A DNA stretch of 32,799 nucleotides from contig JABCTZ010000019.1 of assembly GCA_018238155.1 (NCBI GenBank), forward strand, positions 162,975 to 195,773. Reading direction: 5' to 3'. The DNA is from Candidatus Heimdallarchaeota archaeon. GTDB taxonomy: Archaea > Asgardarchaeota > Heimdallarchaeia > JABLTI01. Positions 1 through 27,455 of this stretch are shown here, piece after piece (the stretch's first letter is position 1; the number at the start of each line of letters is the position of its first letter). Under the pieces are notes generated by a model. That model made no database searches and was not told where the DNA came from. It worked only from the letters and a program-made list of their open reading frames with translations. The translations under genes and the position numbers were made by a program.

Positions 1-768
1 GGTTCTGCAGCCGTAGCAGTTGGTAATTCAACTCACTATGGTATAGCAGGTTATTACCCATTAATGGCTATTAAAGAAGGGATGCTTGGCATGGCTGTAA
101 CAAATGCAAGGCCATCTATTGCACCAACTTTTGGGATAGAACCAATGATGGGCACAAATCCATTAACATTCGGTTTACCAACAGACGAAGAATTTCCATT
201 TGTAATTGATTGTGCTACTTCAATAACCCAAAGAGGAAAAATAGAAGTTCTCTCAAGAACAGAAACACCCGCACCTGAAGGTTGGGTGATAAATGAAGAC
301 GGAAGTTTAGCAACTGATACAGTAAAAATATTGAAAGATTTGAAAGAAGGAAAAGCTGCACTATTGCCTTTAGGAGGTGCTGGAGAAACTCTAGGGGGAC
401 ACAAAGGATACGGCTATGCTGCTCTTGTAGAAATACTTTCAGCAGCTTTTTCTGATGGACCATTTCTGAAAGATTTAACTCTTGAAAAAGGGTATAAAAT
501 AGGTCATTTCTTTTTCGTGATTGATATCTCAAAAATCATTTCATTAGATGTTTTCAAGAAAATTGCAGGTGATATTTGTCGTTCATTAAGAAATTCCAAA
601 AAAGCACCAGACCAAGAGCGCATTTATACTGCCGGTGAAAAAGAATTTGAGATCGAGAAGAAAATAAAGAAAACTGGTGTTCCACTCAATAAGAGCTTGC
701 AAAATGATCTGCTTTTCATGCAAAAAGAATTAGGGTTGAAACTGTTGCCACTTTTTATGGACAAATAG
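1..768 (+). CDS. Malate/L-lactate dehydrogenase, Ldh2 family (5' truncated by window edge)
   Basis: The frame is open from base 1 and ends at a TAG at 766-768, so only the C-terminal 255 residues are present. The Ldh2/MDG2 family (NAD(P)-dependent 2-hydroxyacid dehydrogenases without a classical Rossmann fold) is recognised from the N-S-x-H-Y-G-I-A-G-Y-Y stretch just before the first in-frame Met, the following MGTNPLTFG and FVIDCATS motifs, and the GGHKGYGYA segment. Family members reduce oxaloacetate, pyruvate or related 2-oxoacids in the cytoplasm; the exact substrate cannot be told. The last five codons and the stop lie inside one arm of the 22-bp inverted repeat that bounds the downstream island, so the C-terminus may have been supplied by the inserted DNA. 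It converges on the helicase gene with 24 bp between them. Confidence 0.9.
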   Translation, partial: GSAAVAVGNSTHYGIAGYYPLMAIKEGMLGMAVTNARPSIAPTFGIEPMMGTNPLTFGLPTDEEFPFVIDCATSITQRGKIEVLSRTETPAPEGWVINEDGSLATDTVKILKDLKEGKAALLPLGGAGETLGGHKGYGYAALVEILSAAFSDGPFLKDLTLEKGYKIGHFFFVIDISKIISLDVFKKIAGDICRSLRNSKKAPDQERIYTAGEKEFEIEKKIKKTGVPLNKSLQNDLLFMQKELGLKLLPLFMDK

Positions 769-773
769 GACAT
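752..773 (+). repeat. Left arm of 22-bp perfect inverted repeat
   Basis: Bases 752-773 are the exact reverse complement of 11864-11885. The core contains GGACA-AATA-GGACA, a short internal direct repeat. The arm overlaps the last codons and stop of the Ldh2-family gene. A 22-bp perfect match is far beyond chance over 11 kb, and the two arms enclose precisely the accessory genes. It is most simply read as a terminal inverted repeat of an inserted element; recombination sites of an invertible segment are an alternative. Confidence 0.8.
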
Positions 774-782
774 ATAAATAAT

Positions 783-796
783 GTGAAAATTTTCAC
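783..796. terminator. 14-bp perfect palindrome between convergent genes
   Basis: GTGAAAATTTTCAC is perfectly self-complementary and lies between the stop of the Ldh2-family gene and the stop of the minus-strand helicase gene. Its position suggests a bidirectional terminator or mRNA 3'-end structure. It could also be a protein-binding site just inside the left inverted-repeat arm. Confidence 0.35.
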
Positions 797-2568
797 TTGA
801 AGCTATCAAATGAGACGATTTTTGGAAAGTCTAAAGAATTAGGGTCAAGAACTATGAAGCATCGTTGGTGGTAAGGATCGCCCTTTTTTGTCCAGTGACC
901 AGAACCATAAACTCGAAAGCGTTCATTATAAAATCGGAGATGAACATGTCCAACAACAAGATGTGTTTCTTCAGTGATATCAGGCAACCAAATCTTGTCA
1001 AATTTTATTAAATTCTTTTTTGCTTCAAAGACCGCTTTTCCAATATTTGTTTTATTTACTAGTGCAGGATTTATACCGATTCTATTTCCATGAACGAATA
1101 ATACTTGCTCCGAACCGATCTCAACTTCAACATAGTCTTGGTGGAGGAAACCTGTGAATTGCTCAAGATTACCGTCATGAATAGAAGAACTGCGTATTAG
1201 AACTAGTTTCGACCAAAAACCTTCTTTTAGAGCTAATGCTTTAAATTCAGCAAAAACAAGATGACTTTCTTCAGAAATAGTATCTAACAAATCACCGTTA
1301 ATAATGATAATATCTGCTTGCTTACTCTGTTGTTTAATAACTTCAAAAAATTCTTCTTGATAACATAGCTTGTTTGTAAGGTGAATATCTGAAAAAGCAA
1401 TAATTCGGTTTTCACGGAAATTCATTTGCTCAGAAGGAAATTCATCAAGAAGATCATCATCAGATTCTACAAACGAGATCTTTGTCAAATCCTTAAATAG
1501 AATTTTGAGAGAATCTTTCACTCCTTTAGGAAGCAAACCGAGAATCTCCCCGTAGCAATTCTTACAACCATCTTCACAAGAACAATCAGTTAATCTTTTG
1601 AGCGTTTGAGTAGCGACTTTTTGTAAATGACTGAACAAATACTCAGAATTGCCATTTGGATCTCCTTTATCATAAACTGTTAATTGATTAGTATTAATTG
1701 CAAGTGCGAATTCATTACCAGGGATAGAAAGAACGGTTTCAATCTCAACTTGTAGGACCCGCCCAAAATATTCCAATAATTTCTTAGTTGTAAGTTCTTT
1801 TGGTTTTGGAAAGTCCGATTTTAATGTAATAACTAATCCATCTGATTTTTCAGTAATAGCCAATTCATCCGATCGTTTTTGGGTTAATTCTTGCCAGAAA
1901 AAGTTCTTGTTAACCTTTTCTTCTGTATTCTTAAAAATAATTTTTTCAGGATTAGTGTTAACAATGGCTGAAGGTTGTTGTTTAATTGAAACCTGTCCAA
2001 AACTTATATCAACTATTTTTGTTCCTTTCACTTTCTTAGCGAAAACACCTAAAGTAATCTGAGGATCAAGTAAACGATTAGTTATTCCATAAGAATTTCT
2101 AGCACTTTTTTCTTTTGAGAGTAATTTTTTAACATAGATAATTCTTAATTGCTCATCAAAATCCAATACAAGATATTGTTCTTTGTTACGAGTGATGGTG
2201 TTTCCAGGCAAGCCTTTCTTTAAAACATCTCGAGAAGAAATCTTGCCAAGACTAAATGTTTTATTTTCAAACCAATCAGAACTTGGTCCCAGCTCTTTCT
2301 TAATAGACCAATTATTACTAATAGCTCGAATGGAAAAGGGAATAAGATGATTCTTCTTTTTTGCTTGCACTTTTAGCTTATTTTCTCCTTGACTTGTGAA
2401 GAGAAGTTTCCCATCATTACCTTTTTTTAGTACCATTAAACTGACAAGCTTGGTATATTGTAATCTAGCTAATCGATAAACTTGTGTTCCTTGTTCAAGG
2501 AAGAACTGCATTATCTCTCCAAAATCATTAATACCGTATCTAAGATGCAGTATGATTTGCCCTGCCAA
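793..2568 (-). CDS. C-terminal part of helicase: DUF1998/MrfA-like domain fused to calcineurin-like phosphoesterase
   Basis: This 591-residue open frame continues, in the same frame, the helicase motor encoded at 2641-3972; only a TAG at 2641-2643 separates them, so this is the distal part of a broken or recoded gene. The open frame starts at a TTG that reads as an ordinary Leu of the continuous protein. An ATG at 2511 preceded by GGAGAG could serve for re-initiation. Around residues 299-340 a YDxGDPNGN segment and a Cys cluster (C329, C331, C335, C338) match the DUF1998/MrfA-like C-terminus of MrfA/Hrq1-type helicases. From about residue 388 a metallophosphoesterase follows: SDIHL, NGDLLD, an IHD at the GNHD position, VHGN and GHVH. 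The Asn of GNHD is not conserved (RSSSIHD). Mre11/SbcD-like nuclease action is inference. Confidence 0.82.
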   Translation of the reverse strand: MAGQIILHLRYGINDFGEIMQFFLEQGTQVYRLARLQYTKLVSLMVLKKGNDGKLLFTSQGENKLKVQAKKKNHLIPFSIRAISNNWSIKKELGPSSDWFENKTFSLGKISSRDVLKKGLPGNTITRNKEQYLVLDFDEQLRIIYVKKLLSKEKSARNSYGITNRLLDPQITLGVFAKKVKGTKIVDISFGQVSIKQQPSAIVNTNPEKIIFKNTEEKVNKNFFWQELTQKRSDELAITEKSDGLVITLKSDFPKPKELTTKKLLEYFGRVLQVEIETVLSIPGNEFALAINTNQLTVYDKGDPNGNSEYLFSHLQKVATQTLKRLTDCSCEDGCKNCYGEILGLLPKGVKDSLKILFKDLTKISFVESDDDLLDEFPSEQMNFRENRIIAFSDIHLTNKLCYQEEFFEVIKQQSKQADIIIINGDLLDTISEESHLVFAEFKALALKEGFWSKLVLIRSSSIHDGNLEQFTGFLHQDYVEVEIGSEQVLFVHGNRIGINPALVNKTNIGKAVFEAKKNLIKFDKIWLPDITEETHLVVGHVHLRFYNERFRVYGSGHWTKKGDPYHQRCFIVLDPNSLDFPKIVSFDSFK

Positions 2569-2640
2569 TATCTTCGGGTTAAGCTTGGGGTAAAGGATAG
2601 GATTACAAGTATTCGATTCAAGAATATCTTTGAGTATTTC

Positions 2641-2643
2641 CTA
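2641..2643 (-). other. In-frame amber codon splitting the helicase gene
   Basis: The helicase frame reads DSFYWNN, then TAG, then EILKDILESN, and stays open for 615 more codons. The total of 3180 nt is an exact multiple of three. Residues on both sides fit one continuous helicase C-terminal lobe. TAG is also the normal stop of the Ldh2, Cas1-fusion and aIF2-beta genes here, which argues against wholesale reassignment. A recent nonsense mutation, a base-call error or readthrough remain possible. Confidence 0.8.
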
Positions 2644-3972
2644 ATTGTTCCAGTAAAAACTATCGCGTTTCTTGGAAAGATCGAACAGAAAAACATTCGT
2701 TCTTCTTTCCCCAGGAACAGAGCGATTACGACCAAAGCGTTGAATTATTCCATCTTTTTGTGTTATTGGAATACCAATATTAAACACAGTTTGGATGTTA
2801 GGGATGTTTACACCAAGCTCTAAGACAGAAGAAGAGAGTAGAATTCTAATAATATTCCTACTTCCTTTTTTAATCTCATCTAGAACTTTTTTACGGTGAT
2901 CATACGGTAAATCTGCATGGATCATCTCAATAGTATCAGGATCAAAGAAAGGGTCATCTTGTTTGAGCTTTTGACACAAACAGTTTGTTAATAATTCTAT
3001 ATCTTCTTTCGAATCAAGGAAAACAAGGCAAACTTTTCCAGGCATTTTCTCTAACTCCTTCCAATATTCTGCAAGTAAAGAAACTGTATGCTCAACAGTC
3101 GTTCCAATATACACTTGCTCTCCTCTTACAGGTGGACAAGTAATTATTTTTGCTGCAGGTAAAAAGTCATTTCTGAATTTCTCTACATCTGCTATAGTAG
3201 CAGATGAAAGAACAAATAGGCTCTGAGGGCTCAATTTCTTATGTATATAAATAAAACCCTTAATATTTCCTGCAGCGTAACCGTCAAAAGCATGTATCTC
3301 ATCAAAAACAAGATAATTAGCAGTCTTTATTTTTTTTATCAAAGGACTATTGTTACCATTCTTAAAATGATACCAAAATTTGTCAAAAGTTGCAAGCAAA
3401 ATATTTGGTGGTTCTTGTTCTGTGTCATCCAATTCTTGATCCTTTACTTTAGTTACCCCTTTAGAGGAATTGGTGCTTCCAGTATCTCCACTGTACATTT
3501 TGCAAGTTAATTTTATACCTGTTTTTTCCTCAAATTTTATGAGGTACTCTTTCACTCTTTCAACTTGATCTAGAAGCAATTGTTTTGAAGGGTAAAAAAT
3601 GACCATAAAATCCGTTTCCTCATTTAGTTGTTTGATAATTCCAGGAACGATGAATGAAAGCGATTTCCCGGAATATGTTCCACCATTAATAATAAGGTCT
3701 GGACATTTCTTATTAGCTGAATTATTCAATAAATGCTTTATTGCTTGTTCTTGATGCTTGTAAGGATTAGTGCTACCGGTTATTTCTTCGATCACTTCTG
3801 CTAATGCTTGAACATTACCAGGTAAGAGTTCTTGCCAAGTGAGATCAGTTACTTTCCTTGGTTGTGTTGCTGGAAGATTATGAATAGACTTCCATTTTCG
3901 AGGTTTACTAGGTTTAATCGGGAAGATCTCTTTCCTATTAAAATTGTATTTGCTTTTTACCATGAATGTCAC
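2641..3972 (-). CDS. DEAD/DEAH-box SF2 helicase motor domains (N-terminal part of amber-interrupted gene)
   Basis: This is an ATP-dependent nucleic-acid helicase. All SF2 motifs are visible: Q-motif region YKHQEQAI (71-78), Walker A GGTYSGKS (97-104), Walker B DEIH (224-227), SAT (257-259), the motif V region ELGVNIP (385-391) and motif VI QRFGRNR (411-417). The layout matches the Hrq1/MrfA group. The listed start is GTG at 3972; an ATG three codons later (3963) with AGGTGA eight bases upstream is at least as likely. The gene overlaps the end of the Cas1-fusion gene by 26-35 nt, which implies translational coupling and joint function. The frame ends at TAG 2641-2643 but continues in register into the DUF1998/phosphoesterase part, giving 1059 codons if the amber is read through. 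Confidence 0.88.
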   Translation of the reverse strand: MTFMVKSKYNFNRKEIFPIKPSKPRKWKSIHNLPATQPRKVTDLTWQELLPGNVQALAEVIEEITGSTNPYKHQEQAIKHLLNNSANKKCPDLIINGGTYSGKSLSFIVPGIIKQLNEETDFMVIFYPSKQLLLDQVERVKEYLIKFEEKTGIKLTCKMYSGDTGSTNSSKGVTKVKDQELDDTEQEPPNILLATFDKFWYHFKNGNNSPLIKKIKTANYLVFDEIHAFDGYAAGNIKGFIYIHKKLSPQSLFVLSSATIADVEKFRNDFLPAAKIITCPPVRGEQVYIGTTVEHTVSLLAEYWKELEKMPGKVCLVFLDSKEDIELLTNCLCQKLKQDDPFFDPDTIEMIHADLPYDHRKKVLDEIKKGSRNIIRILLSSSVLELGVNIPNIQTVFNIGIPITQKDGIIQRFGRNRSVPGERRTNVFLFDLSKKRDSFYWNN

Positions 3973-6900
3973 CTATCATTTTGAAATATTTTCTACTAGT
4001 TGCAGCTTTTTCTTCAACCCAATCAATTACTCTTCGAATAATAGTTGTTGGTTCCCAATTTAACCAATAATTGTTGTGAAAATTTTTTTGAAAACTATCA
4101 AAAAACATTCTGAATTGAGAAATAATACTTGATACTTTATCTAAGTGAGGAGGTATATCAATTATCAATTCTCTTGTAAAAATTTCATCTCTTGTTAGAG
4201 TAACTCCTAGAGCAAACCGAAGCTCCTTTACGTTTTGGTTTTCAAGATTTAATTGATAAAGATTTTTCTTGTCTTTTTTATCTCGGAGAAGTAGACTTCT
4301 AGAAACCATTTGGTCAAGTATTCTCTGTATTTGGTTTTGTGTTAGACCGAGCAATTCCCCTAGATTACAAGTTGAGTATTCAACAATTGTGAAGTCTATT
4401 TCATGAGCATTGTACAATAACAATAAAATAACAATCAAACTCCTATCTTGCTCTTTAATTTGATGTTTGGTCAATCGAAAAACATTAGACTGTTCGATTA
4501 CTTCTTTCTTGTACCAATGATTCATTGTTTCTGCTCTATAGTTTTCTCTTGCTCTTTTTCGCTCCAAAACTTCTTGTTCTATTCCCTCAAAAATTACTCC
4601 TCCTTCACTTGCAAAATGATTTAGCGCTAATAACTTCTCTTCGAGTTCAGCTGGGCAGAAAGTAAACGGAATGAAATGGGATTCATCAAAACACTTTTTG
4701 ATCTTTTTCAAAGTTATCTGCTTATGCATATCTATCTCTGATAGACATTTTTCAAAAGCAACCCTCAAGCACAGAAGATTGAATTCAAATGCTCGCTGAA
4801 ATGTCATTATTTGTCCATTATGCGAAACAGATTGTTCAAGAGCTTCTGAAACCAAATTGGTGAATTTGTCCAAGGAAGAACCTTTCACTTGATAGATCTC
4901 TTGTCCATCCTCACCTAGTACGTATTTACAATCGTTGAATCCGAGGGTACCATCTCTAATAGCTTTTACCATTGTTACTAGCACAAGTACACGAACAGCT
5001 TCTATTAGGTCAAAGTAGAAACCTAGCTTATCAATATCTGACTTTGTTTTTCTTCTGTGAAACAAACCAGGACCTAAAAGAGCGGGGTCCATGCCCATCT
5101 TATGAAACAGCTGATCTACTTCTGCTCTAAATGAACGTAGCATTTGATTAAGAAGAGCATCTAAAGGTGAAAAGGCACTGCTAACCTTATTGCTGAAGGA
5201 TAGAAACATATCTATCACTAATCGACTATTTACTCGCCCTTTTGTCCAGAGACCTACTCTCGCAGCTTCTGCCTTCAACAAATCAAAAAAGTGTTTGTTG
5301 CTTAGTGCTTCTAATTGAGTGCCATAATAACTTGACTTAACTTCTCCACCAATTACTTTCATGTGCAAATCAACCATTCCTAATAATTGATGATTGTAGG
5401 ACCAGTCAGAGAAACTTTTCAATTCTATTTCATACTTTATCGATAACAAACCAGCAATATTTGAGAGATGCCTTGCTACCAAAAATTGATGGTTGAATAT
5501 TTCATAATCTGAGCTTTTTTTGATTATTTTTTCAATATAGAAATAGTCTTCAGCTGAAAAGGTTTTTTTATATCGACTTTTTGCTTTTTTCTTCTTTGAT
5601 TTTTGTTCTGTTCGTACAATTTCGTATTTGTACTTTTCTGGTTCAAAGTCAGCTAGTAATCTCAGTGTTCCCTCTAATTCTTGGTGTCGTATGCCTGAAA
5701 AATAAACAAACTGCACTTTATCCAGAGCAATTTCATATTTACCAATCACTAGATAATAAGGTGGTTCATCACTCGCTTCGTTAATTTTTATTCTTGAACT
5801 CTCTACGTCATGTATGACATAAACGTAAGACGGATCTTTTTTCTTCAAAACATCAGGAACAGTTGCAGTTTCTTTATAGTAAAGGCTTCTTTGATGGTGC
5901 CTTTGCTCCATTTTCACTCTAACTTTTTTCTTATCTTTTAATAGGAGATAGATTGTCGAACAATTAGTACAGATAACTCTTCGTCTTGGAAAGAAAATTC
6001 TATCGAGTGTGCCAAATTCCTTTATTTGTTCTTGGCAAGAGAGACAATGATATTCATACTCTGAAACATTTCCTGATAAGAAACTTATTGGTATATCCTT
6101 CATGTCTTGAGTTAGCTCGTCAGCAGTAGTAGTGTATCTAACATTATCTCCATCTGATTCATAATCTTCTTTTTCTTTGTATTTCCCACAAGCAGTCAAT
6201 TCAAATCTAATTGTTCCATTTGCATATTCTATATCGTCACTATCTAATGTACTAGGGTTTTTTGCTTGTTGTAAGCGCAAGAAAGTGCATGTTTTGAAGC
6301 GTTTATTGTACCATTGACAGTTCCCGCAATTCTTTTGGAGGTGAGGGTTCGCATCCAGTAATTCTTGAGTAAGATACTTTAATTTTGATTCTCCTCTATT
6401 AGTGTAAGTAATGATGCGAACAAGACGTCCTTCTTCTACTAATCCTTCCAATACTTTCTTGGCTTCTTGCCAGAACATGTGATAATAATCACCTGTGAAT
6501 TTCACAGTTAAGGTTTCTCGATTGGCTCTTCGAAGAATCCATTCTATTCTTCTTTCTTCAATGGTGCATTTCTCTTCTTTATTATAATTCTTGAATTGTT
6601 GATAGAAAATGTATGCTTCAGTATTCATTAATTTTTCAAAAGCACCAAGGACTTTTTTAGCTGAAATTCTTTTGTAATTTTTAATTATTGGATTGAATTT
6701 CCTTTCAATGATCTCGATCATTTGATCATTCTTTTTTTCAGTATCTAACTTTTCAGGTATTGCCTCCTCAAATCTTTTAACTGTTTGATAACTACTGCCT
6801 ATCAGTTGAAGATAAAAAATGATTATCTCATTCACGGAAAATTTGTGACTTTCTTTTTTGTTTTTGTAAAGAATCCTTGAAAAATGAGCTAAAAGTTCAC

Positions 6901-8116
6901 TAAAATTACCCTCGACACCACCAAACCATGATGACACACTAAAAATTGCTTCCCCTAGAGTACTAAGTTTGAATCTTCCTTTTTCCTTGGTGACTACCGG
7001 AAGAAATCTTGCTGATTCTTTTGGTTTGTCCCAGGAATACGTTCGAGATAGATCTTGTTTACTGAGGTCAACATTAAAATCAAAACCTCTATAAGTTATT
7101 TCTCCTGTTATCGTTTTAGTGTTTTGTCCTTTTGTGAATGAATGAATGTGTTTTACTATTCCACCGAAAACTTTCTGATCAAGCCTATTCTTTTCTTTAA
7201 GAAGTTCATCTGAAGGTAATTCTTCTTCTGAGGAAGGAAAAACTCCATTACTGTAGAGGTACAGTTTATAAGTAAAAGTTGTTTTGAACTCTTTAACCAG
7301 TTCTTTTATCAGTTTTCTTCCCCTAAAAAGCTCTGTGAAAATAAATAATTGGAATTGATCTTTATATAGGTGAGGAATAGCTTCTCTGAAAGGATTATTG
7401 TATTCTAATCTTATTCTTTCATCGCATCGAAAGAAAAAACTACTATCAGCTTTAAAGAAGAATTGGTAATCTTTCCTTGATAGTATTGGGAACTGTGCTT
7501 CATCAAGAATGAAGGAATAATTCGGTCTAATGCGCTTATGCCTATGAACACAGCCAAAAATAACATCTAATTTGCCTACATCCTCGTTGATATGTTTTCG
7601 TCTTAATGGATTGATCAAGATAATTTGTACTGAAGAAGGATCATTCTTGTTTGTTGTTAAACCCCAGAAAGTGTTATATGTTGTCAAAATAAAATCTGCT
7701 TCATTAGGATAGTCTGCTTTGATTTCTTTGTCAACTTTTTTTCTTTGGGTTTCATTCGAAACATATAGTCTAAAGCAAGAATTGAGTTTATTAAACTGTT
7801 CAATAAACATTGAAGTTTCAAATCGGTTGTTGGTAACAATAATTACAGGTAATCGCGTGTAATTCTTCATTGCTAGTGCTCTTCGAACACCAAAGGAAAT
7901 GACAAAATGATTAGGTTCGAAGTCATTTGGTTTACTTTTATTACCACAAACAAGGACAAAATTTTTCGTTTCAGTGAGAAAAGCTGTTCTATCCTGGAAA
8001 GAAAAATTGTCTAGAAGGTCTTTATCGATTATTCTTTCCCTTCCTTCTAATACTTCTGTCACACCCATAGAAAGGCAAAGAGGAATTTTTTTTGTGGAAG
8101 AAATAGCTTTACTCAT
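3938..8116 (-). CDS. Cas1-domain fusion protein: degenerate helicase-like, Cys-rich, Cas1 integrase, winged helix
   Basis: The protein has 1392 residues. Residues 65-265 resemble an SF2 ATPase lobe (IIVTNN, ILTTYNTF, FILDEAQ at 202-208) but have no GKS/T Walker A. Cys-rich segments follow: C597/C600/C610/C643, and a ribbon C691/C694/C716/C719. Residues about 755-1115 match a full Cas1: a beta-rich N-terminal part, then LLKAEAARVGLW with the candidate catalytic E950, SPLDALLNQMLRSFRAEV, MGMDPALLGPGLFH with H1020, and YFDLIEAVR with D1036 and E1039. The E-to-H spacing (70) and the H-then-D/x3/acid pattern fit Cas1. Residues 1210-1295 look like a winged helix. Start: ATG at 8116 with GAGG seven bases upstream. 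It is first in an operon with the helicase. No Cas2, Cas4 or CRISPR array is present, so a role as integrase or repair/defence nuclease is inferred. Confidence 0.85.
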   Translation of the reverse strand: MSKAISSTKKIPLCLSMGVTEVLEGRERIIDKDLLDNFSFQDRTAFLTETKNFVLVCGNKSKPNDFEPNHFVISFGVRRALAMKNYTRLPVIIVTNNRFETSMFIEQFNKLNSCFRLYVSNETQRKKVDKEIKADYPNEADFILTTYNTFWGLTTNKNDPSSVQIILINPLRRKHINEDVGKLDVIFGCVHRHKRIRPNYSFILDEAQFPILSRKDYQFFFKADSSFFFRCDERIRLEYNNPFREAIPHLYKDQFQLFIFTELFRGRKLIKELVKEFKTTFTYKLYLYSNGVFPSSEEELPSDELLKEKNRLDQKVFGGIVKHIHSFTKGQNTKTITGEITYRGFDFNVDLSKQDLSRTYSWDKPKESARFLPVVTKEKGRFKLSTLGEAIFSVSSWFGGVEGNFSELLAHFSRILYKNKKESHKFSVNEIIIFYLQLIGSSYQTVKRFEEAIPEKLDTEKKNDQMIEIIERKFNPIIKNYKRISAKKVLGAFEKLMNTEAYIFYQQFKNYNKEEKCTIEERRIEWILRRANRETLTVKFTGDYYHMFWQEAKKVLEGLVEEGRLVRIITYTNRGESKLKYLTQELLDANPHLQKNCGNCQWYNKRFKTCTFLRLQQAKNPSTLDSDDIEYANGTIRFELTACGKYKEKEDYESDGDNVRYTTTADELTQDMKDIPISFLSGNVSEYEYHCLSCQEQIKEFGTLDRIFFPRRRVICTNCSTIYLLLKDKKKVRVKMEQRHHQRSLYYKETATVPDVLKKKDPSYVYVIHDVESSRIKINEASDEPPYYLVIGKYEIALDKVQFVYFSGIRHQELEGTLRLLADFEPEKYKYEIVRTEQKSKKKKAKSRYKKTFSAEDYFYIEKIIKKSSDYEIFNHQFLVARHLSNIAGLLSIKYEIELKSFSDWSYNHQLLGMVDLHMKVIGGEVKSSYYGTQLEALSNKHFFDLLKAEAARVGLWTKGRVNSRLVIDMFLSFSNKVSSAFSPLDALLNQMLRSFRAEVDQLFHKMGMDPALLGPGLFHRRKTKSDIDKLGFYFDLIEAVRVLVLVTMVKAIRDGTLGFNDCKYVLGEDGQEIYQVKGSSLDKFTNLVSEALEQSVSHNGQIMTFQRAFEFNLLCLRVAFEKCLSEIDMHKQITLKKIKKCFDESHFIPFTFCPAELEEKLLALNHFASEGGVIFEGIEQEVLERKRARENYRAETMNHWYKKEVIEQSNVFRLTKHQIKEQDRSLIVILLLLYNAHEIDFTIVEYSTCNLGELLGLTQNQIQRILDQMVSRSLLLRDKKDKKNLYQLNLENQNVKELRFALGVTLTRDEIFTRELIIDIPPHLDKVSSIISQFRMFFDSFQKNFHNNYWLNWEPTTIIRRVIDWVEEKAATSRKYFKMIGDIHGKKQIQF

Positions 8117-8436
8117 AAAAGAACCTCATTTTAACACTTTTTTTCTGTCTTATTACCCCAATTTCGATCAAATTGTCCCTTATTTAATGTTATACTGGCA
8201 AATTTACTTTAAAAAGGACTAAAAAACCGACAAAAATAGTTCCTTTATAAACGTCAAAAAAAATGACCTTCCTTTCTGATTTATAAGACCTTAAAATAGA
8301 CGTTTTTTGTATTAAAAAATACTAGTTTCTCAATAGAATTTCGCACGAGTGCGCCCGAAGGGCTGACCATTGTAAATGGGCAGATAGCACTATGCGGGTC
8401 GGCTCCGAGCCAGAACATTGAGTGTTTTGTCAATCT
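8117..8436. promoter_or_regulatory. 320-bp intergenic region: promoter side of Cas1 operon and an inverted repeat
   Basis: This is the only gene-free stretch over 300 bp. Near the Cas1-fusion start it is very AT-rich; on the minus strand TTTATAAA (about 8242-8249) and TTAAATAA (about 8178-8187) are candidate TATA elements. AAACGTC at 8249-8255 and GACGTTT at 8299-8305 form a perfect 7-bp inverted repeat around this promoter, a possible operator. The half next to the endonuclease gene holds a GC-rich hairpin cluster listed separately. Confidence 0.4.
8330..8421 (-). ncRNA. GC-rich multi-hairpin element (candidate structured RNA or element end)
   Basis: On the minus strand, downstream of the LAGLIDADG gene, CTCAAT and ATTGAG enclose a chain of short hairpins: GGCTCGGAGCC, CCATTTACAATGG, GCCCTTCGGGC and CGCACTCGTGCG. 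Its high GC content stands out sharply from the surrounding AT-rich DNA. There is no open frame. It could be a small RNA, the 3' structure of the endonuclease mRNA, or the subterminal hairpins of an IS200/IS605-like end. I do not recognise a known RNA family. Confidence 0.4.
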
Positions 8437-9975
8437 TCAACAGATATCCTTACAAATACAAAATTCTTTGACAAAGGTCAAAAGTACAGCATTATAGAGC
8501 ATTCTTTTATTTGGTTTATCAATTGAAAAGTAATTACAGAATTTTTGTTTATATTCTTCCAAAGGTTCTTGTGGTTTCCCAATAAAAAGAATATAATTTA
8601 GTTCTTTTAGCTGAATTCCTTTTAGTAAATTTAAAAGATTGGAATTTGCTTTTGTTTTTAAAACACACTTTGACCTACTTGCTTGTATGGATATCTTTGG
8701 ATTTTCTTTGTAAAATTTTAAAAGCGAGTAATTTGATAAAGTAAAAATCTGTGAAAGAATTGAAATTGGTATAGCTGTTGTATTACGTTCATATTCTGAT
8801 ACCATGCCTTGGTGAATTGGTAGTTGTTCTGCAAATTCTTTCTGAGTTAAGCTACCGCGTAATTTTTTTAGTAGATTCCCTGTATTCCCTATACAGAAAT
8901 TTGGACATCTAGTATAATCAAAATAACCTTCAATCAGCTTTTCCTTTTGATAGTCGATTACTTGCCCACTCCAAGTACCACTTTTTAGTAAAGTCTGAGG
9001 TTTCGGTGAAAAACGATTAACTCTTCTTGTTAGTAACTGTTCTAGTTCGAGTTGTTTTTGCGGATGCTTTGAACCAACTAATACAGCAAACTGTTTTCGA
9101 TAATTACCAGCAATATTTGCTGCATACGTCTCTACTCCAAATAGAAAATTGGTATACAATCTATACTCAATTCCATTTAATTTCAGAAAATTGATAAAAT
9201 CATTAAACAATCCTTGAGAAACAGTGCAGAAATTTATTGTATCTTTATAACTTCCATCGGCATCCATAATACCGGACCAAAATAGCCTGCGGAAAGTGTC
9301 ATTGGTCTGGAAGATAAGTGGTTCTCGTAAAGCAGGATACTTTCGAGCAGCAATAGGTTGTGAAGAAAGGAAATTAAAGAACCTGACAAGCCATTTCCCT
9401 AGGATGTTCACATTCCAAGCATTAGCATTTGATTGTTTGAAAAACTCAGTTTTGGACTTGAAAAGTTCTGATAACTGCTGAGTTAAATTTTCAATATGCT
9501 CTTTTGAAGCATCAATGATATTGATAAAGAACTCAGCGAGATGCCCATCTCCCATAATCACCCCTGTAAGGTATGCTAGTTCTTCGGATAAATAAAGTGG
9601 TAATTGAAAGCCCTCTCCACGAGCAGATTGGAACGAAATACTTTGTCTTCTAAGAAAAAACTCTTGCCAAGTTTCCGCTAACCGGAATAAAGGGAAAGGC
9701 AATCGTTTTTGCTCTTCTAAATACTTAATTATTCTTTTCTGCCAGGAGCGAATGGAAAAATCAGCTTTGGTCCCCCGGAAATAATGATGAGTTTTTTCTG
9801 CTAAGAAGAGTGTCTTCTTTCGAATCTTCTCTATCCAAGTTTCTTCTAACACAACATATGGGAATGATTGCAGTAACCGCTCTCCTGTAACGAAATCAAT
9901 TTTGCGAACCATAATAGAATAAAGTTGGAATTGATTCTCCGGAGTGAAGATCTTCTCTGACTGGTCGCTCTCCAA
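8437..9975 (-). CDS. LAGLIDADG homing endonuclease with XRE-type HTH domain
   Basis: Two LAGLIDADG motifs are present: LTGVIMGDGHL (D143) and FWSGIMDADGSYK (D238/D240), separated by about 90 residues as in single-chain enzymes that cut long asymmetric DNA sites. Around residues 370-410 an XRE/Cro-like helix-turn-helix is seen (LTQKEFAEQL...GMVSEYERN). No splicing motifs flank it, so it looks free-standing rather than an intein. The listed start is TTG; the frame stays open upstream to 10087. A perfect AGGAGG at 10075-10080 lies nine bases before an in-frame ATT (10063-10065), suggesting about 30 extra N-terminal residues with an unusual start, or a damaged start. It sits between the Cas1 operon and the divergent TnpB gene. 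Confidence 0.85.
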   Translation of the reverse strand: MESDQSEKIFTPENQFQLYSIMVRKIDFVTGERLLQSFPYVVLEETWIEKIRKKTLFLAEKTHHYFRGTKADFSIRSWQKRIIKYLEEQKRLPFPLFRLAETWQEFFLRRQSISFQSARGEGFQLPLYLSEELAYLTGVIMGDGHLAEFFINIIDASKEHIENLTQQLSELFKSKTEFFKQSNANAWNVNILGKWLVRFFNFLSSQPIAARKYPALREPLIFQTNDTFRRLFWSGIMDADGSYKDTINFCTVSQGLFNDFINFLKLNGIEYRLYTNFLFGVETYAANIAGNYRKQFAVLVGSKHPQKQLELEQLLTRRVNRFSPKPQTLLKSGTWSGQVIDYQKEKLIEGYFDYTRCPNFCIGNTGNLLKKLRGSLTQKEFAEQLPIHQGMVSEYERNTTAIPISILSQIFTLSNYSLLKFYKENPKISIQASRSKCVLKTKANSNLLNLLKGIQLKELNYILFIGKPQEPLEEYKQKFCNYFSIDKPNKRMLYNAVLLTFVKEFCICKDIC

Positions 9976-10238
9976 AAGGTCATTTGCTGTGAGCCATTTA
10001 TTCCGCTCCGTTGGTTCAGCATCCCCTAGCAGTGGATCATCTGACCAGTGGAGATGGGTCGTAATTGTTCTATTCCTCCTAACTGATTATTGTTTTTTTG
10101 CTTCTTAAATACCCCTTTGATTAGCTGTTCGAAAGTCGAATTGATTAAACAATTGTTAAAACAAACGATTAATACTTTCAGTAATCTCTTTGGAAAACAG
10201 CTATATATCTAGCTAAATATACTTTTTGTTGAAGAAAA
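9976..10238. promoter_or_regulatory. Divergent region between endonuclease and TnpB-like genes
   Basis: The first 110 bases are probably an N-terminal extension of the endonuclease frame (see the AGGAGG at 10075-10080). The remainder is AT-rich and should hold both promoters; CAGCTATATATCTAGCTA at about 10199-10216 contains an interrupted palindrome (AGCTA...TAGCT) and a TATA-like core upstream of TnpB. I see no gene. Confidence 0.3.
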
Positions 10239-11882
10239 ATGCCTGCTCGAAAGAAAAATCTCACAACCAAAAGCTACCGGTTCAAACTACAAAGAGATAG
10301 ACGATTGAACTGGTTCAAAGAGTTGGTAATGAAAGTAGCGATACTGCTACTCAATGAGCTTTGGTCGGAAGAGTGGATAGAACGAGTAGGTAAAAGTGGA
10401 CTAAAAGCATACAAAGTTATCAACGAAGCGAGAGCACAAATCGAAGGGATTTATCTGCCTTCAAGAATTAGAAGAGGAATTACAGAACAAGTTGGCAGGA
10501 TCATTCGGGGACAATACAAAAGGATGAATTGTTACTATGATTGCTTGGAAATAGTGAACTGGTTGGGAGTGGAAACAAACGAGAACAAACTCCTAGCAGT
10601 TGTTATGCAGCATTGTCGAACAACATCAAAGAAAAGCAAAAAGACCTACCCGCTCTATAAGAAAGTCATGGTCAAGCAAACAGTAGAGATGATAAAGAAC
10701 TGGCACGAACGATTTGGAAAAGGTTTTACGACATTCTCATACACAGACTTTGTGCAACCAAAAATTCACAGGTTCTCATTTCCCTACGGACCAGATGATG
10801 GACAAGCAATACAATATTCCGCTCTCGATGGAAGAATCCACTACAAACTAAAATTGCCTGTTTGCTCAGAACCTAAGACAAGAAACGACTGGATGTGGGT
10901 CACAAGCGAGATAGCTATCCCTGAAAAAGTAAAAGCAAAAACAAAAACAGCAATAAGCAAGCAACCACGAAAACCGACCTTGATAACAAAAAGACTCAAA
11001 GGAGGACTAACCTATTTCTTCCTGCAATTCCCTTGGGAATACAAAAAAATGCAAAAGAGAAAAGGAAAAGAACGTGTCCTTGCCATCGACCTTGGCTTGA
11101 AAAAACTGGCAACATGTATTGTCGGGGAAAACGGTAAACAGATATCAAAACCAATCACGATAAAACTCCGAGGTTCACAATACCGTCACATCGAAAGACT
11201 CTACACTCACATAGCAGGGATACAAAAGAAGCTATCCAAACTACAAAAACAAAACAGAATCTATCTGGGAGTAACAATAGAGGAGGAGAGAAGAAGGCTC
11301 TATGAGAAGAGAAATCGATTAGGAGACGAGCTTGTATTTGCAACAACAAATACACTCATCCAAATTGCTCTCAAGTGGCAGTGCACGAAAATAACGATAG
11401 AAGATCTTCGCTCTTACAAACCTCCACGAGGTAAAAGAAGTTGGTCAAGAAGGCTCTCAGAATGGCTCAGAGGAAGAATAGCTCTCAACTTAGAGCACAA
11501 GTGCAAAGAAAACGGTCTAACGCTCCAAAAGGTTTGCCCATGGAATACTAGCTCCCACTGTCCTCGCTGTGCAGCAAAAGGAACGAAAGTCAAAGGACCA
11601 AACAACCTCCTTGAAGATAAAAAAGGTCGCTTCTTTCACTGCCCTGAATGTGGCTTCACAGCAGATCGAGATTATATCGCTGCGGTGAACATCTATCGAG
11701 CAAGCTTCATAGATTATCATTCAATTAAAAGTCTGAAAGACACCAGCCCCGTGCCCTACATGGACTCGGGAATCCTTCACCCAACTGTTTCTGGTGAGGG
11801 CTCAGAGATGATCAGTAACAACAACGGTCTTGTTACTGTGACTGGGAATGAACAAATAGTGCAATGTCCTATTTGTCCATAA
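10239..11882 (+). CDS. tnpB: TnpB-like RuvC nuclease (IS200/IS605 OrfB family)
   Basis: This is an RNA-guided DNA nuclease of the TnpB/Cas12 ancestor family. The C-terminal half has the RuvC-I motif VLAIDLGLKKL (D284), RuvC-II ITIEDLRS (E388), a zinc finger C441/C444/C468/C471, and RuvC-III ADRDYIAAVNI (D478; the usual DxNAA has Ile for Asn). The N-terminus (1-270) is longer than in many TnpBs of about 400 residues. No TnpA transposase is in the window. The 3' end contains strong hairpins typical of the overlapping guide RNA, and the stop codon lies within the right arm of the 22-bp inverted repeat, so the last residues may be non-native. Confidence 0.9.
   Translation: MPARKKNLTTKSYRFKLQRDRRLNWFKELVMKVAILLLNELWSEEWIERVGKSGLKAYKVINEARAQIEGIYLPSRIRRGITEQVGRIIRGQYKRMNCYYDCLEIVNWLGVETNENKLLAVVMQHCRTTSKKSKKTYPLYKKVMVKQTVEMIKNWHERFGKGFTTFSYTDFVQPKIHRFSFPYGPDDGQAIQYSALDGRIHYKLKLPVCSEPKTRNDWMWVTSEIAIPEKVKAKTKTAISKQPRKPTLITKRLKGGLTYFFLQFPWEYKKMQKRKGKERVLAIDLGLKKLATCIVGENGKQISKPITIKLRGSQYRHIERLYTHIAGIQKKLSKLQKQNRIYLGVTIEEERRRLYEKRNRLGDELVFATTNTLIQIALKWQCTKITIEDLRSYKPPRGKRSWSRRLSEWLRGRIALNLEHKCKENGLTLQKVCPWNTSSHCPRCAAKGTKVKGPNNLLEDKKGRFFHCPECGFTADRDYIAAVNIYRASFIDYHSIKSLKDTSPVPYMDSGILHPTVSGEGSEMISNNNGLVTVTGNEQIVQCPICP
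11774..11876 (+). ncRNA. Candidate reRNA/omegaRNA scaffold at the 3' end of tnpB
   Basis: Three hairpins occur in a row within the tnpB 3' end. CCTTCACC (11774-11781) pairs with GGTGAGGG (11793-11800), including one G-U. CAGTAACAA (11813-11821) pairs perfectly with TTGTTACTG (11830-11838). ACAAATAG (11852-11859) pairs with CTATTTGT (11869-11876). TnpB guide RNAs are known to overlap the tnpB 3' end and use such hairpins as scaffold. The third hairpin includes part of the inverted-repeat arm. Exact ends cannot be fixed from sequence. Confidence 0.5.
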
Positions 11883-11885
11883 AAA
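11864..11885 (-). repeat. Right arm of 22-bp perfect inverted repeat
   Basis: This is the exact reverse complement of 752-773. It covers the last codons and TAA stop of the TnpB-like gene. Immediately outside, 11888-11901 shows only 9 of 14 matches to 738-751 outside the left arm, which is too weak to call a target-site duplication. Confidence 0.8.
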
Positions 11886-11975
11886 AAGGAACGGTTAACT
11901 CAATATGAGTTTCCATTCTAATTCTTTTTTTCTATTCTTTCTCATACGAAATTCTAGATAATGGAGAATACGTCA

Positions 11976-18142: not shown

Positions 18143-18235
18143 TACAAATAATATTAGAATATACTTATAGTAAAAACACTCTCTCTTGTAAGTAAACAAG
18201 ATTTAGTGTATGTAAAGTGTCCAAGGGTGACGGAG

Positions 18236-19084
18236 ATGTACAGTTACGTTTCACTAAAAGTAGATTGCCCTCTTTGCGGGAAATCTTTGATGGATTCTAA
18301 AGTACAGGTAGATGACATTCCAAGTATTAAACTAAATATTTCTGAGAATGGTGAACGAGGTACGATAAACTTAAGCTCGTTCTATGGAAGTTATAATTAT
18401 GAATGTGACATTGACATTCATGAAGATTTGATATATCAATTCTATTGCCCCCACTGTTTTGAAAACCTTAATACTGAAGAAGAGAAATGTGATATATGTT
18501 CTTCACAAGCGGTTAATTTAGATATTAGAGAAGGGGGCGAAGTACGATTTTGTCCAAGAGCTGGTTGTAAAAATCATAATGTGGAATTTGTTGATCTTTC
18601 AAATGTTCTAAATTACTTGAAACAGAATATTGAGAAACCAGAGATTATTGAAGTACTTGATGATGATGAAAAAGCTATCCAAAAAGAGTTAATTACAAGT
18701 GGTACTTTTTTGCGAATATATTGTCCTCATTGTAAGAAGAGTTTAGTTGAGAAAAATTCTGTAATGTTTAAAATTAAGAATCAAAATAATGAGAAAGGCT
18801 ATTTGACGTTGAGTCCATATCTGAACGTTTTTGCAGAGAAATCTACGATTTTTGTTCCTGATGGTGCTGTTGCAAATGATATTATGTGTCCATTCTGTGA
18901 AAAATCATTGGTAGATGAGGAAGATTTATGCGGAGACTGTAAATCACCTGCAGTAAATGTCAATGTAGCAGCAGTAAGGAAAATGATTGATTTTCATTTC
19001 TGTTCAATGAAAGGCTGTCATTGGCATAGTCTTAGTCAAGAAGATTTACATCATGTTTTGTTGGAGGATAGCATTAATTGGTAA
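18236..19084 (+). CDS. Tandem zinc-ribbon-like module protein (unknown function), paralogue 1
   Basis: Not a family I can name. The protein is two copies of one module of about 110-130 residues: CPxCxxSL, a beta-rich stretch (LNISENGERGTINLSSFYG in copy 1; LTLSPYLNVF in copy 2), CPxC, CxxC, then FCxxxGCxxH. The second copy ends FHFCSMKGCHWHSL. The open frame extends to a GTG at 18206, but the ATG at 18236 has GGTGA five bases upstream and aligns with the start of the paralogue at 25760, so it is chosen. It lies 76 bp upstream of the NuoE-like gene in the same direction, suggesting an accessory, cluster-assembly or metal-binding role for the redox complex. Confidence 0.75.
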   Translation: MYSYVSLKVDCPLCGKSLMDSKVQVDDIPSIKLNISENGERGTINLSSFYGSYNYECDIDIHEDLIYQFYCPHCFENLNTEEEKCDICSSQAVNLDIREGGEVRFCPRAGCKNHNVEFVDLSNVLNYLKQNIEKPEIIEVLDDDEKAIQKELITSGTFLRIYCPHCKKSLVEKNSVMFKIKNQNNEKGYLTLSPYLNVFAEKSTIFVPDGAVANDIMCPFCEKSLVDEEDLCGDCKSPAVNVNVAAVRKMIDFHFCSMKGCHWHSLSQEDLHHVLLEDSINW

Positions 19085-23134: not shown

Positions 23135-23992
23135 ATGTACGAAATTGTAGAAAAATACGAAGAAGTTCCAAATGTTCATCGTTTAGTGATACGAGAACCA
23201 AATATTGCCACAAAAGCACAACCAGGACAATTTGCTATTCTTATGGCGGACGAACAAAGTGAACGTGTTCCTATTTCAATAGTTGACACCAAAGATGATA
23301 CATTTACAATGTTTATTCTCGAGCTAGGAGTTTCATCCGCAAAAATCGTCAATATGAAGCAAGGAGACAGATTAGAAGCTGTTACCGGACCTCTCGGAAT
23401 GCCCGCAACTTTAGGTAAATATGGTCGGGTTGTTCTTGGAGGGGGTTGCTATGGCATAGGAGCTATTTATCCACTTGCAAAAGCTTTGAAAGAGCAAGGA
23501 AATGAAGTTGTGACGATAATAGAAGCACGAAGTGATTATCTACTGTATTTCCAAGAAGAGTTGAAAGCGGTTTCGGATGAATTTTTTGTAGCAACTTCTG
23601 ATGGAACAGAAGGCACAAATGGACACGTACAGGATGTTTTAGTAAAGCTAATCCGCGATGGAGAAAGATTTGACCATGCAAAATTCATCGGATGTACGTA
23701 TATGATGATGAACTGTTCGCATATCACATCACCATATAGAATTCCGACAAAAGTAGCATTGAATACAATAATGTTGGATGGCACGGGTATGTGTGGTTGT
23801 TGTCGAGTTTCTGTTGAAGGTGTGACGAAATTCGCATGTGTAGATGGTCCTGAATTTGATGGACATCAAGTTAATTGGGATGAATTAATGAAACGAAAAT
23901 CTTCCTATCTTATGGAGGAAATGCTTGCTTATCAAACAGCACCACATACTTGCAAAGCATTAGAAAAAGCTTATTCTGGTGATTTAAAATGA
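23135..23992 (+). CDS. nfnA: NfnA/NfnS-like FAD-NAD [2Fe-2S] subunit, copy 1
   Basis: Small subunit of NADH-dependent ferredoxin:NADP+ oxidoreductase, related to PyrK and sulfhydrogenase gamma. The FAD site is RVPISIVD (44-51), the NAD site GGGCYGIGA (102-110), and the [2Fe-2S] ligands by comparison with NfnS are D215, C220, C223 and C235 in LDGTGMCGCCR...FACVDGPEFDGH. The 285-residue length is standard. It begins five bases after the NuoG-like gene and overlaps nfnB by 4 bp, which ties NuoEFG-like and Nfn parts into one operon. Confidence 0.93.
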   Translation: MYEIVEKYEEVPNVHRLVIREPNIATKAQPGQFAILMADEQSERVPISIVDTKDDTFTMFILELGVSSAKIVNMKQGDRLEAVTGPLGMPATLGKYGRVVLGGGCYGIGAIYPLAKALKEQGNEVVTIIEARSDYLLYFQEELKAVSDEFFVATSDGTEGTNGHVQDVLVKLIRDGERFDHAKFIGCTYMMMNCSHITSPYRIPTKVALNTIMLDGTGMCGCCRVSVEGVTKFACVDGPEFDGHQVNWDELMKRKSSYLMEEMLAYQTAPHTCKALEKAYSGDLK

Positions 23993-25482
23993 GTAAGAAG
24001 AAGTCTCCCTCTCCTAAAAAAAATAATGCAAAGCAATTACATAAAGAGAAACATAGTGATAAATCCAAACGTCCTCCTAGACCACCACGTACAAAAATGC
24101 CAGAACAACCCCCCGAAATTAGAATAAGAAATTTTGTTGAGGTTCCTTATGGTTTATCCCCTGAAGAAGCACAACTTGAGGCTTCTAGATGTATACAATG
24201 CAAACGACCGAAATGTGTTGAAGGTTGTCCTGTAAGTGTTCAAATACCCGAATTTATTGCTCTTATAAAAGACGGGCATTTTGCTGAAGCTGCTTGCAAG
24301 ATAAAAGAAACAAACGTTTTGCCTGCTGTTTGTGGTAGAGTTTGTCCTCAAGAAACACAATGCGAAGAAACATGTATTTTAGGGCGTCGTGGAGAACCCG
24401 TCGCAATCGGTTATTTGGAAAGATTTTGTGCAGATTATGAAAGATTGGATGGGCATGTTAAACTCCCCAAGAAGAAGAAATCAAATGATATGAAAGTGGC
24501 AATTATCGGTTCTGGTCCTGCAGGTTTGACTGTTGCCGGTGATCTCGCATTACTCGGATACAAATTAACGATTTTTGAAGCATTTCATAAAGGTGGTGGA
24601 GTACTGGTTTATGGAATACCTGAGTTTAGGTTGCCAAAGGAAATTGTTGAAACAGAAATAAACTATCTGGAACGTCTTGGTGTAGAAATTAAATACAATC
24701 ACGTTATTGGTATGTGTAAATCATTGAATGAACTCATGAGAAAAGATGGTTTTGATGCAGTTTTCATTGGTGTTGGTGCCGGATTGCCGCGATTTATGAA
24801 TATTCCTGGAGAGAATCTTAATGGTGTGTATTCAGCAAATGAATACCTTACTCGATCGAATTTAATGAAAGCATATCTTTTTCCCACATTCAATACACCT
24901 ATCATGAAAGGAAGAAAAGTAACAGTGGTTGGAGGTGGAAATGTTGCTATGGATTGTGCTCGCACAGCACTTAGGCTTGGTTCGGATAAAGTAATGTTGG
25001 TCTATCGAAGAGCGAAAGAACAAATGCCCGCAAGAGCTGAAGAAGTGCATCATGCAGGAGATGAAGGTGTCGATTTTAGATTATTATCAAATCCAGTAGA
25101 AATTTTCGGTGATGATTCTGGGGCAGTTCAACGAATCAAATGCCAGAAATACATGTTGGGTGAACCTGATGATTCGGGTAGACGAAGACCCTTGCCTATT
25201 GAAGGAGAATACTTTGAACTTGAAACTGATTTGATAATCATTGCAATTGGTAATAACGCAAATCCGCTAATAAAAGCAACAACTCCTGATATTGAAACAA
25301 ATAAATGGGGCAATATTATTGTAGATGAATTTGGTCGTACAAACAAAAAATTCGTCTATGCTGCTGGAGATATTGTCACAGGTGGCGCAACTGTCATCTC
25401 AGCAATGGGTGGTGGGAGAAAAGCAGCAACAGGTATACATAGAGACCTAATGGGAATAAAAGATGAGGTCGTCAAAGATTGA
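23989..25482 (+). CDS. nfnB: NfnB/NfnL-like (GltD-type) NADPH flavoprotein, copy 1, with basic N-terminal tail
   Basis: Large, bifurcating-FAD subunit of Nfn-type transhydrogenase, homologous to the small subunit of glutamate synthase. Two [4Fe-4S] motifs: C68/C71/C76/C80 and C115/C119/C125/C129. FAD binding is at GSGPAG (174-179), NADPH binding at VVGGGNVAMDCA, and the C-terminal AAGDIVTGGATVISAMGGGRKA is the conserved FAD contact. The first 40 residues are a Lys/Pro-rich basic tail absent from typical family members. Glutamate synthase function is unlikely because no GltB is nearby and it is coupled to nfnA. Confidence 0.93.
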   Translation: MSKKKSPSPKKNNAKQLHKEKHSDKSKRPPRPPRTKMPEQPPEIRIRNFVEVPYGLSPEEAQLEASRCIQCKRPKCVEGCPVSVQIPEFIALIKDGHFAEAACKIKETNVLPAVCGRVCPQETQCEETCILGRRGEPVAIGYLERFCADYERLDGHVKLPKKKKSNDMKVAIIGSGPAGLTVAGDLALLGYKLTIFEAFHKGGGVLVYGIPEFRLPKEIVETEINYLERLGVEIKYNHVIGMCKSLNELMRKDGFDAVFIGVGAGLPRFMNIPGENLNGVYSANEYLTRSNLMKAYLFPTFNTPIMKGRKVTVVGGGNVAMDCARTALRLGSDKVMLVYRRAKEQMPARAEEVHHAGDEGVDFRLLSNPVEIFGDDSGAVQRIKCQKYMLGEPDDSGRRRPLPIEGEYFELETDLIIIAIGNNANPLIKATTPDIETNKWGNIIVDEFGRTNKKFVYAAGDIVTGGATVISAMGGGRKAATGIHRDLMGIKDEVVKD

Positions 25483-27451: not shown

Positions 27452-27455
27452 ACGA

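What the first reader, a model, noticed from the sequence alone, without database searches (positions are those of the whole stretch)
3938..8116. Complete Cas1-type integrase domain inside a 1392-aa multidomain protein, without any CRISPR context
Residues 755-1115 reproduce the Cas1 architecture, including candidate catalytic E950, H1020, D1036 and E1039 with family-like spacing and the C-terminal helical tail. The same chain carries a helicase-like N-terminus, two Cys-rich modules and a winged helix. No array, cas2, cas4 or effector is visible. I know of RT-Cas1 and casposase Cas1, but this fusion fits neither.
Basis: partly seen in the sequence, partly recalled or inferred. Interest (0 to 1): 0.93.

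Follow-up and report, generated by a model that had tools for sequence, protein, structure and literature searches.

The report
Transposon pairing TnpB with Cas1
A jumping stretch of DNA in a Heimdall-type archaeon, with matching ends and with a related genome that lacks it at the same spot, carries both a TnpB gene (likely an RNA-guided DNA cutter) and a protein part predicted to fold like Cas1, the DNA-joining enzyme of CRISPR, so the two gene kinds thought to have founded CRISPR immunity would here already travel together.

The parts
736..11894 (.). whole mobile element, 11,159 bp, inserted directly after GGG (733-735)
   Evidence: alignment of the joined window flanks with the empty site in G060:C99 / L078; exact ends ambiguous by 2-4 bp (GG and TT on both sides)
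752..773 (-). inverted repeat arm at the geneC end (C-end)
   Evidence: 22 of 22 bp complementary to 11864-11885
11864..11885 (+). inverted repeat arm at the TnpB end (T-end, right end), overlapping the tnpB stop codon; continued by AAGGAACGG
733..735 (+). GGG target motif next to the C-end, present in the empty site
   Evidence: 13 of 17 distinct C-ends in fetched loci are followed by CCC, i.e. GGG on the other strand
3938..8116 (-). geneB, 1392 aa: pseudo-helicase + two zinc modules + Cas1-fold domain + C-terminal part
4742..5884 (-). Cas1-fold domain of geneB, residues 745-1125
   Evidence: AlphaFold2 pLDDT 75.5, Foldseek and VIA-align, hhalign
5309..5311 (-). codon of E936, catalytic glutamate candidate
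5057..5059 (-). codon of H1020, catalytic histidine candidate
5000..5011 (-). codons of D1036 to E1039, acidic catalytic candidates
6578..8095 (-). Hel308-type helicase fold without P-loop, residues 8-513 of geneB
5960..6328 (-). two zinc modules of geneB (C597-C643, C691-C719)
793..3972 (-). geneC: DEAD/Helicase_C helicase + MrfA-type Zn-binding (MZB) domain + calcineurin-like phosphoesterase; in-frame TAG at 2641-2643 in this copy
   Evidence: Pfam; intact 1058-aa frame in L014
8437..10038 (-). geneA: LAGLIDADG + HTH_3; frame continues upstream to about 10038, ATG of the homologue not kept in this copy
10239..11882 (+). tnpB, 547 aa (OrfB_IS605 + Cas12f1-like TNB)
11743..11894 (+). putative omega-RNA region at the tnpB 3' end and T-end; a similar block is kept in the mini-elements
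   Evidence: RNA function inferred

Best explanation
This is an 11.16-kb mobile element with IS607-type ends that carries a tnpB gene and an operon whose 1392-aa protein has a part predicted to fold like the Cas1/casposase integrase, and that Cas1-like part is predicted to do a DNA strand-joining step that likely helps the element spread in place of the usual TnpA recombinase. Shown: bounded element, empty site, GGG target, conserved E/H/D residues, purifying selection, and repeated union of TnpB, geneA and Cas1-like proteins in relatives. Inferred: the Cas1 fold itself (predicted models); that TnpB, with an RNA read from the right end, cuts GGG-flanked empty sites; that geneC (helicase and phosphoesterase) opens and trims DNA; that the pseudo-helicase and zinc parts of geneB hold DNA; that the Cas1-fold part joins an element end to the target; that geneA (LAGLIDADG-HTH) binds or nicks ends or target. 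No step has been tested.
For: Perfect 22-bp inverted repeat and a clean empty site in G060. The 18-bp end occurs 51 times at <=2 mismatches in 6 of 9 genus genomes against 2 for the reversed control; G060 mini-elements share near-identical end stretches. No serine recombinase (PF00239) in 5 of 6 genomes, this one included, and no Y1 transposase (PF01797) in 6 of 6. TnpB is scarce, 53 matches in 6 genomes; I read 26 of the 53: in 19 loci that could be judged, geneA or its remains lies beside tnpB in 17, and a Cas1-like gene follows in 12, in three architectures (fused 9, compact 2, split 1). The operon occurs beside two TnpB clades about 16-21% identical with different right ends; a tblastn with IS607 TnpA found no copy in these loci. 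dN/dS window versus L014: geneB 0.25 (Cas1 part 0.15), geneC 0.14; geneA 0.22 and TnpB 0.14 with near-saturated dS.
Against: The junctions are what IS607 serine recombinases leave (insertion at GG/GGG, no duplication; PMC6188088 passages), not what casposases leave (14-15 bp; PMC6977970 passages). G058 has two serine recombinase genes, one beside a very similar end, so TnpA in trans is possible, and the drafts are about 84-92% complete. The operon is not tied to one end type; the geneB tree forces at least 2 changes of TnpB type. In L155 it lies between a tRNA-Leu gene and type I restriction genes. A relative without TnpB on its contig (G000:C19) with kin in similar surroundings in G056 looks resident. 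7 of the 19 TnpB loci have no Cas1-like gene in reach. In this window geneC carries a stop. Of four sites tried for an empty allele, one was clean.
Confidence: 0.42

Rival explanations
1. Cargo: the three-gene operon is a self-standing DNA-processing or defence module that rides in TnpB elements, which are moved in trans by IS607 TnpA (type 1 ends) or another transposase (type 2 ends). The Cas1-fold protein then acts on invading or broken DNA, not on the element.
For: Junction chemistry fits IS607; an IS607-type TnpA lies beside a very similar end in G058, and in G059 a short stretch beside an identical core end looks by eye like the start of TnpA (tblastn at 1e-6 did not find it); operon exchanged between end types; type I restriction genes beside it in L155; a relative without TnpB nearby; MZB helicase parts and matches to defence helicases.
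Against: No serine recombinase found in 5 of 6 genomes, including G060 with its many end copies; no TnpA in the operon-bearing loci searched; steady TnpB-geneA linkage (17 of 19).
Confidence: 0.35
2. Guide acquisition: the Cas1-fold machine inserts new DNA next to the right end, where TnpB's guide is read, so that TnpB gets new targets, a CRISPR-like adaptation without arrays.
For: Predicted Cas1 fold with casposase as best match beside a TnpB whose guide would be read from the right-end flank; helicase and phosphoesterase partners could make fragments.
Against: In the one clean comparison the right-end flank is the native site, with no inserted DNA; no repeats or arrays.
Confidence: 0.06
3. 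Relic: the operon is a decaying passenger without function.
For: Stop in the window's geneC and changed geneA start, stops in geneB of L010, L004 and L005, remnants in L028 and L042.
Against: dN/dS 0.14-0.25 between window and L014, all four genes open in L014, invariant catalytic candidates down to 35% identity.
Confidence: 0.08
4. The domain is only Cas1-like by chance of helical folds and has no integrase ancestry.
For: No Pfam Cas1 match for P0001, L021, L023, L024, L168 515 aa or L173; no Cas1 among PDB sequence matches, alone or as a profile; hhalign of the 515-aa half to canonical Cas1 non-significant; model pLDDT 75.5.
Against: Kin pass the Pfam cut-off of 22.3: L145 36.5, L147 25.8, L148 25.5 bits; L024 matches a PADLOC Cas1 model at 9e-7; hhalign to the fusions E 6e-11 and to canonical Cas1 E 8e-5, probability 61%; the 13 best fold matches are all Cas1 entries.
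Confidence: 0.03

Closest known systems
IS607-family insertion sequences
   Same: GG/GGG target without duplication, subterminal inverted repeat with direct TGTCC motifs, tnpB at the right end, GGG flank as published for the ISXfa1 TAM
   Different: tnpA serine recombinase absent; a geneA-geneB-geneC operon of about 9 kb stands there; far larger than usual IS607 elements (usual size recalled)
Casposons / casposase (Cas1-solo)
   Same: inverted repeats, Cas1-fold protein, best structural match is casposase 6opm, helicases among casposon genes
   Different: no DNA polymerase B among the element's genes, no 14-bp target duplication, TnpB present, Cas1 part fused to a pseudo-helicase
CRISPR Cas1 adaptation modules, RT-Cas1
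   Same: predicted Cas1 fold and E/H/D residues
   Different: no Cas2, Cas4 or RT family in the ORFs scanned, no array
MrfA / DISARM-type helicases
   Same: geneC has DEAD, Helicase_C and the MrfA Zn-binding (MZB) domain
   Different: joined to a calcineurin-like phosphoesterase and linked to TnpB and a Cas1-fold protein

Membership tests
Cas1 superfamily | Cas1 fold | tested here: met
Cas1 superfamily | conserved Glu, His and Asp of the active site at the family positions | tested here: met
   E936, H1020, D1036 invariant in 22 of 22 rows and aligned on canonical Cas1 motifs by hhalign; geometry not measured
Cas1 superfamily | sequence profile match | tested here: inconclusive
   P0001: no Pfam match; kin L145, L147, L148 pass the cut-off, L021, L023, L024, L173 and L168 do not; hhalign to Cas1 E 8e-5, probability 61%
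Cas1 superfamily | integrase activity | not testable with these tools
   needs protein
Casposon | family B DNA polymerase in the element | tested here: not met
   the element's four genes were scanned with Pfam; none is PolB
Casposon | target duplication of about 14 bp | tested here: not met
   empty-site comparison leaves at most 2-4 bp; casposase 14 bp per PMC6977970 passages
Casposon | inverted repeats and a Cas1-family protein | tested here: met
   (fold predicted)
IS607 family | insertion at GG/GGG without duplication, subterminal inverted repeat | tested here: met
   against PMC6188088 passages
IS607 family | serine recombinase TnpA in the element | tested here: not met
   not among the element's genes; PF00239 not found in G000
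IS607 family | TnpB at the right end | tested here: met
CRISPR-Cas adaptation module | CRISPR array | tested here: not met
   no array-like direct repeats in the window
CRISPR-Cas adaptation module | cas2 beside cas1 | tested here: inconclusive
   no Cas2 in 26 of 32 ORFs of 100 aa or more; ORFs under 100 aa, where a cas2 could hide, were not scanned
SF2 helicase (Hel308/Ski2) | helicase fold | tested here: met
SF2 helicase (Hel308/Ski2) | P-loop (GK[ST]) | tested here: not met
   pattern found in 0 of 15 rows, residues 1-300

The most novel reading that the evidence does not exclude
A new class of transposon in which an RNA-guided TnpB nuclease and a Cas1-family integrase work together on one element: TnpB picks and cuts the site and the Cas1-like protein, driven by helicase and phosphoesterase partners, joins the element to it, in three Cas1 architectures and on two end types. 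It would be a living counterpart of the step in which a Cas12 ancestor and a Cas1 adaptation module first met.
Probability: 0.35. Interest if true: 0.95.

Novelty: new variant of a known kind. Interest (0 to 1): 0.88.

Why it matters
CRISPR type V is thought to draw on two separate mobile elements: casposons gave the Cas1 adaptation module, TnpB transposons gave Cas12 (PMC6452270, passages, which counts them among unrelated MGE varieties). Here both gene kinds lie in one bounded mobile element, repeatedly and in several forms, in Asgard archaea. If the Cas1-like part acts on the element, RNA-guided cutting and Cas1-type joining were already coupled outside immunity, which makes the origin question testable with proteins in hand. 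It also opens a branch of the Cas1 superfamily fused to helicases, one arm of which pairs with RAMP proteins and a repeated RNA that Rfam does not hold. I saw no paper on a TnpB-Cas1 element in the listings of searches (open-licence PMC only; others listed only part of their hits).

Tried and rejected
Readings rejected: a standard casposon (no PolB, no duplication), a CRISPR locus (no array, no Cas2 or Cas4 seen), an ordinary IS607 element (no TnpA). A tRNA attachment site was tested in L155, where the operon follows tRNA-Leu; no direct repeat of the tRNA end was found downstream. Array-like repeats near the operon: none. Empty sites for L014 (about 290 bp differ), L027 (only outer parts of the flanks align) and L018 (G057 holds the same insertion with an internal deletion; in G058 and G059 only one flank aligns) gave no clean answer. 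hhalign of the geneB N-terminus against helicases was non-significant (probability 3.6%, E 0.012); only the fold comparison showed it. Viral contigs: no relative. Identity correlations between genes rest on 5-9 loci (B-C 0.66, T-A 0.08, A-B -0.15, T-C 0.68, A-C -0.70), and geneC of L018 was read through a frameshift there; I take from them only that the parts are exchanged. Type 2 ends were defined at the TnpB side only (10 of 10 alike, two of them the same insertion). Of 30 canonical Cas1 loci at hand the script kept 16.

In the TnpB count I read 26 of 53 matches and left out of the 19: L162 (same insertion as L018), L178, L182, L183 (contig ends at tnpB), L170, L176, L179 (other TnpB clades). 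The other 27 matches, many short frames or the ~400-aa TnpB group, were not looked at.

Full report
1. What is in the sequence. The frame 3938-8116 is on the minus strand and codes for 1392 aa without a stop. Directly downstream, overlapping by some codons, runs geneC (helicase, MrfA-type zinc domain, calcineurin-like phosphoesterase; 3972-793), which in this copy has one in-frame TAG (2641-2643) where the homologue L014 has lysine. Upstream lies geneA (LAGLIDADG_3 plus HTH_3; 8437 to about 10038), and divergent from it tnpB (10239-11882, plus strand).

4. A bounded element. The window holds a perfect 22-bp inverted repeat 752-773 / 11864-11885 with 11,090 bp between. Joining the window's flanks in a script and aligning them to G060:C99 gave one alignment across the junction with the insert missing: the empty site reads GAATTAGGG|TTAACTC, the filled site GAATTAGGG-[736-11894]-TTAACTC. 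At most 2-4 bp (GG, TT) could be a duplication. The 18-bp end occurs 51 times at <=2 mismatches in 6 of 9 genus genomes, against 2 for the reversed control. Mini-elements of roughly 330-390 bp in G000 and G060 keep both ends and a block like the tnpB 3' end that may be the omega RNA.

5. What the ends are. GG/GGG target, no duplication, and a subterminal inverted repeat with short direct motifs are published traits of IS607 (PMC6188088, passages), and GGG is the flank seen for ISXfa1 TnpB (PMC10711439, passages). In G058 an IS607-type TnpA lies beside an end much like ours. But PF00239 was found in only 1 of 6 genomes (G058) and PF01797 in none of 6. These genomes are drafts, so absence is not proof.

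6. Relatives. Seventeen other homologues were found among 5.8 billion proteins; the four with organism names are Heimdallarchaeota. In GTDB contigs six loci came from two Heimdallarchaeota MAGs. Eight of 227 phylum genomes match. TnpB is scarce in six genus genomes (53 matches). Of 26 that I read, 19 could be judged: 17 have geneA or its remains beside tnpB (divergent in most, in tandem in L148 and L155), and 12 a Cas1-like gene behind it, nine in the fused form, two compact (L148, L173) and one split into 688 and 515 aa (L168). Compact and split forms align with P0001 by hhalign at E 9e-18 (518-1096) and 3e-22 (76-729); the 515-aa half matches the Cas1 region at 8e-13 but canonical Cas1 not at all, and of these forms only L148 passes Pfam's Cas1 cut-off. 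The two TnpB types are 16-21% identical and have different right ends; the geneB tree forces at least 2 changes between types. Between window and L014 the synonymous distance is about 1.8 (near saturation) for tnpB and geneA but 0.50 and 0.66 for geneB and geneC: the parts are exchanged, yet keep coming together.

7. How it likely works. Shown: a mobile, selected element that unites TnpB with a protein of predicted Cas1 fold. Inferred: the operon stands where tnpA would, with two TnpB types, and takes over part of the mobility work, TnpB choosing GGG-flanked sites and the Cas1-like part joining DNA. Against this, the junctions are IS607-like, not casposase-like, which leaves the cargo reading nearly as likely. 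I give 0.42 and 0.35.

8. Membership. It is a Cas1-superfamily domain by predicted fold and residues, with the direct sequence test inconclusive. The element is not a casposon (two defining traits tested and not met) and lacks the IS607 transposase although its ends are IS607-like. Were the Cas1-like part shown to join the ends, the element would be a new class.

9. A remote arm. In G176 and G177 the helicase-Cas1 fusion is followed by a RAMP gene (L145: Pfam RAMPs 1.7e-7; PADLOC Csm3 2.5e-6) and a third gene, with two to three motif-matched copies per locus of a sequence of about 110 nt around them. Ten copies fold into a common structure in which 12 of 25 pairs show a change on both sides in at least one copy; Rfam has no match at its gathering scores in three of these loci.

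Noticed in passing
L145 5990-7870, L146 6300-7610, L147 2350-3050, L024 6410-8215: Repeated structured RNA (10 copies aligned, 12 of 25 pairs with a change on both sides, no Rfam match) around a helicase-Cas1 fusion + RAMP + third gene cassette: a candidate undescribed RNA-guided or CRISPR-like system.
   Followed up: partly
window 2641-2643: Single in-frame TAG in geneC where L014 has Lys; frame continues on both sides. Decay or recoding not settled.
   Followed up: partly
window 64-768: The malate/L-lactate dehydrogenase frame (Pfam Ldh_2) runs into the element, so its last codons (736-768) come from the insertion.
   Followed up: partly
L155 7890-23275: The operon stands between a tRNA-Leu gene and type I restriction-modification genes (HsdM, specificity and HsdR by Pfam); no tRNA repeat found downstream.
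   Followed up: partly
L027 1470-1910, L034 1160-1560, L081 1-340, L088 1-340: Mini-elements of roughly 330-390 bp that keep both ends and the putative omega RNA block; near-identical end stretches in G060 suggest recent spread.
   Followed up: partly
L114 444-2132, L115 1360-3396: IS607-type TnpA genes in G058, each followed by the same two unknown genes: a second cargo-bearing IS607 type.
   Followed up: no
L023 6824-13558, L165 749-2140, L021 6205-17094: Relative of the operon with Cas1-like protein, helicase, MZB protein and phosphoesterase as separate genes and a geneA-like gene near a PPDK-type gene in two genomes; no TnpB on G000:C19: likely resident.
   Followed up: partly
window 23135-25482 and 26624-29327: Two copies of an NfnAB-like gene pair (Pfam DHODB_Fe-S_bind; Fer4_20 + Pyr_redox_2) near zinc-ribbon proteins (18206-19084, 25760-26620).
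   Followed up: no
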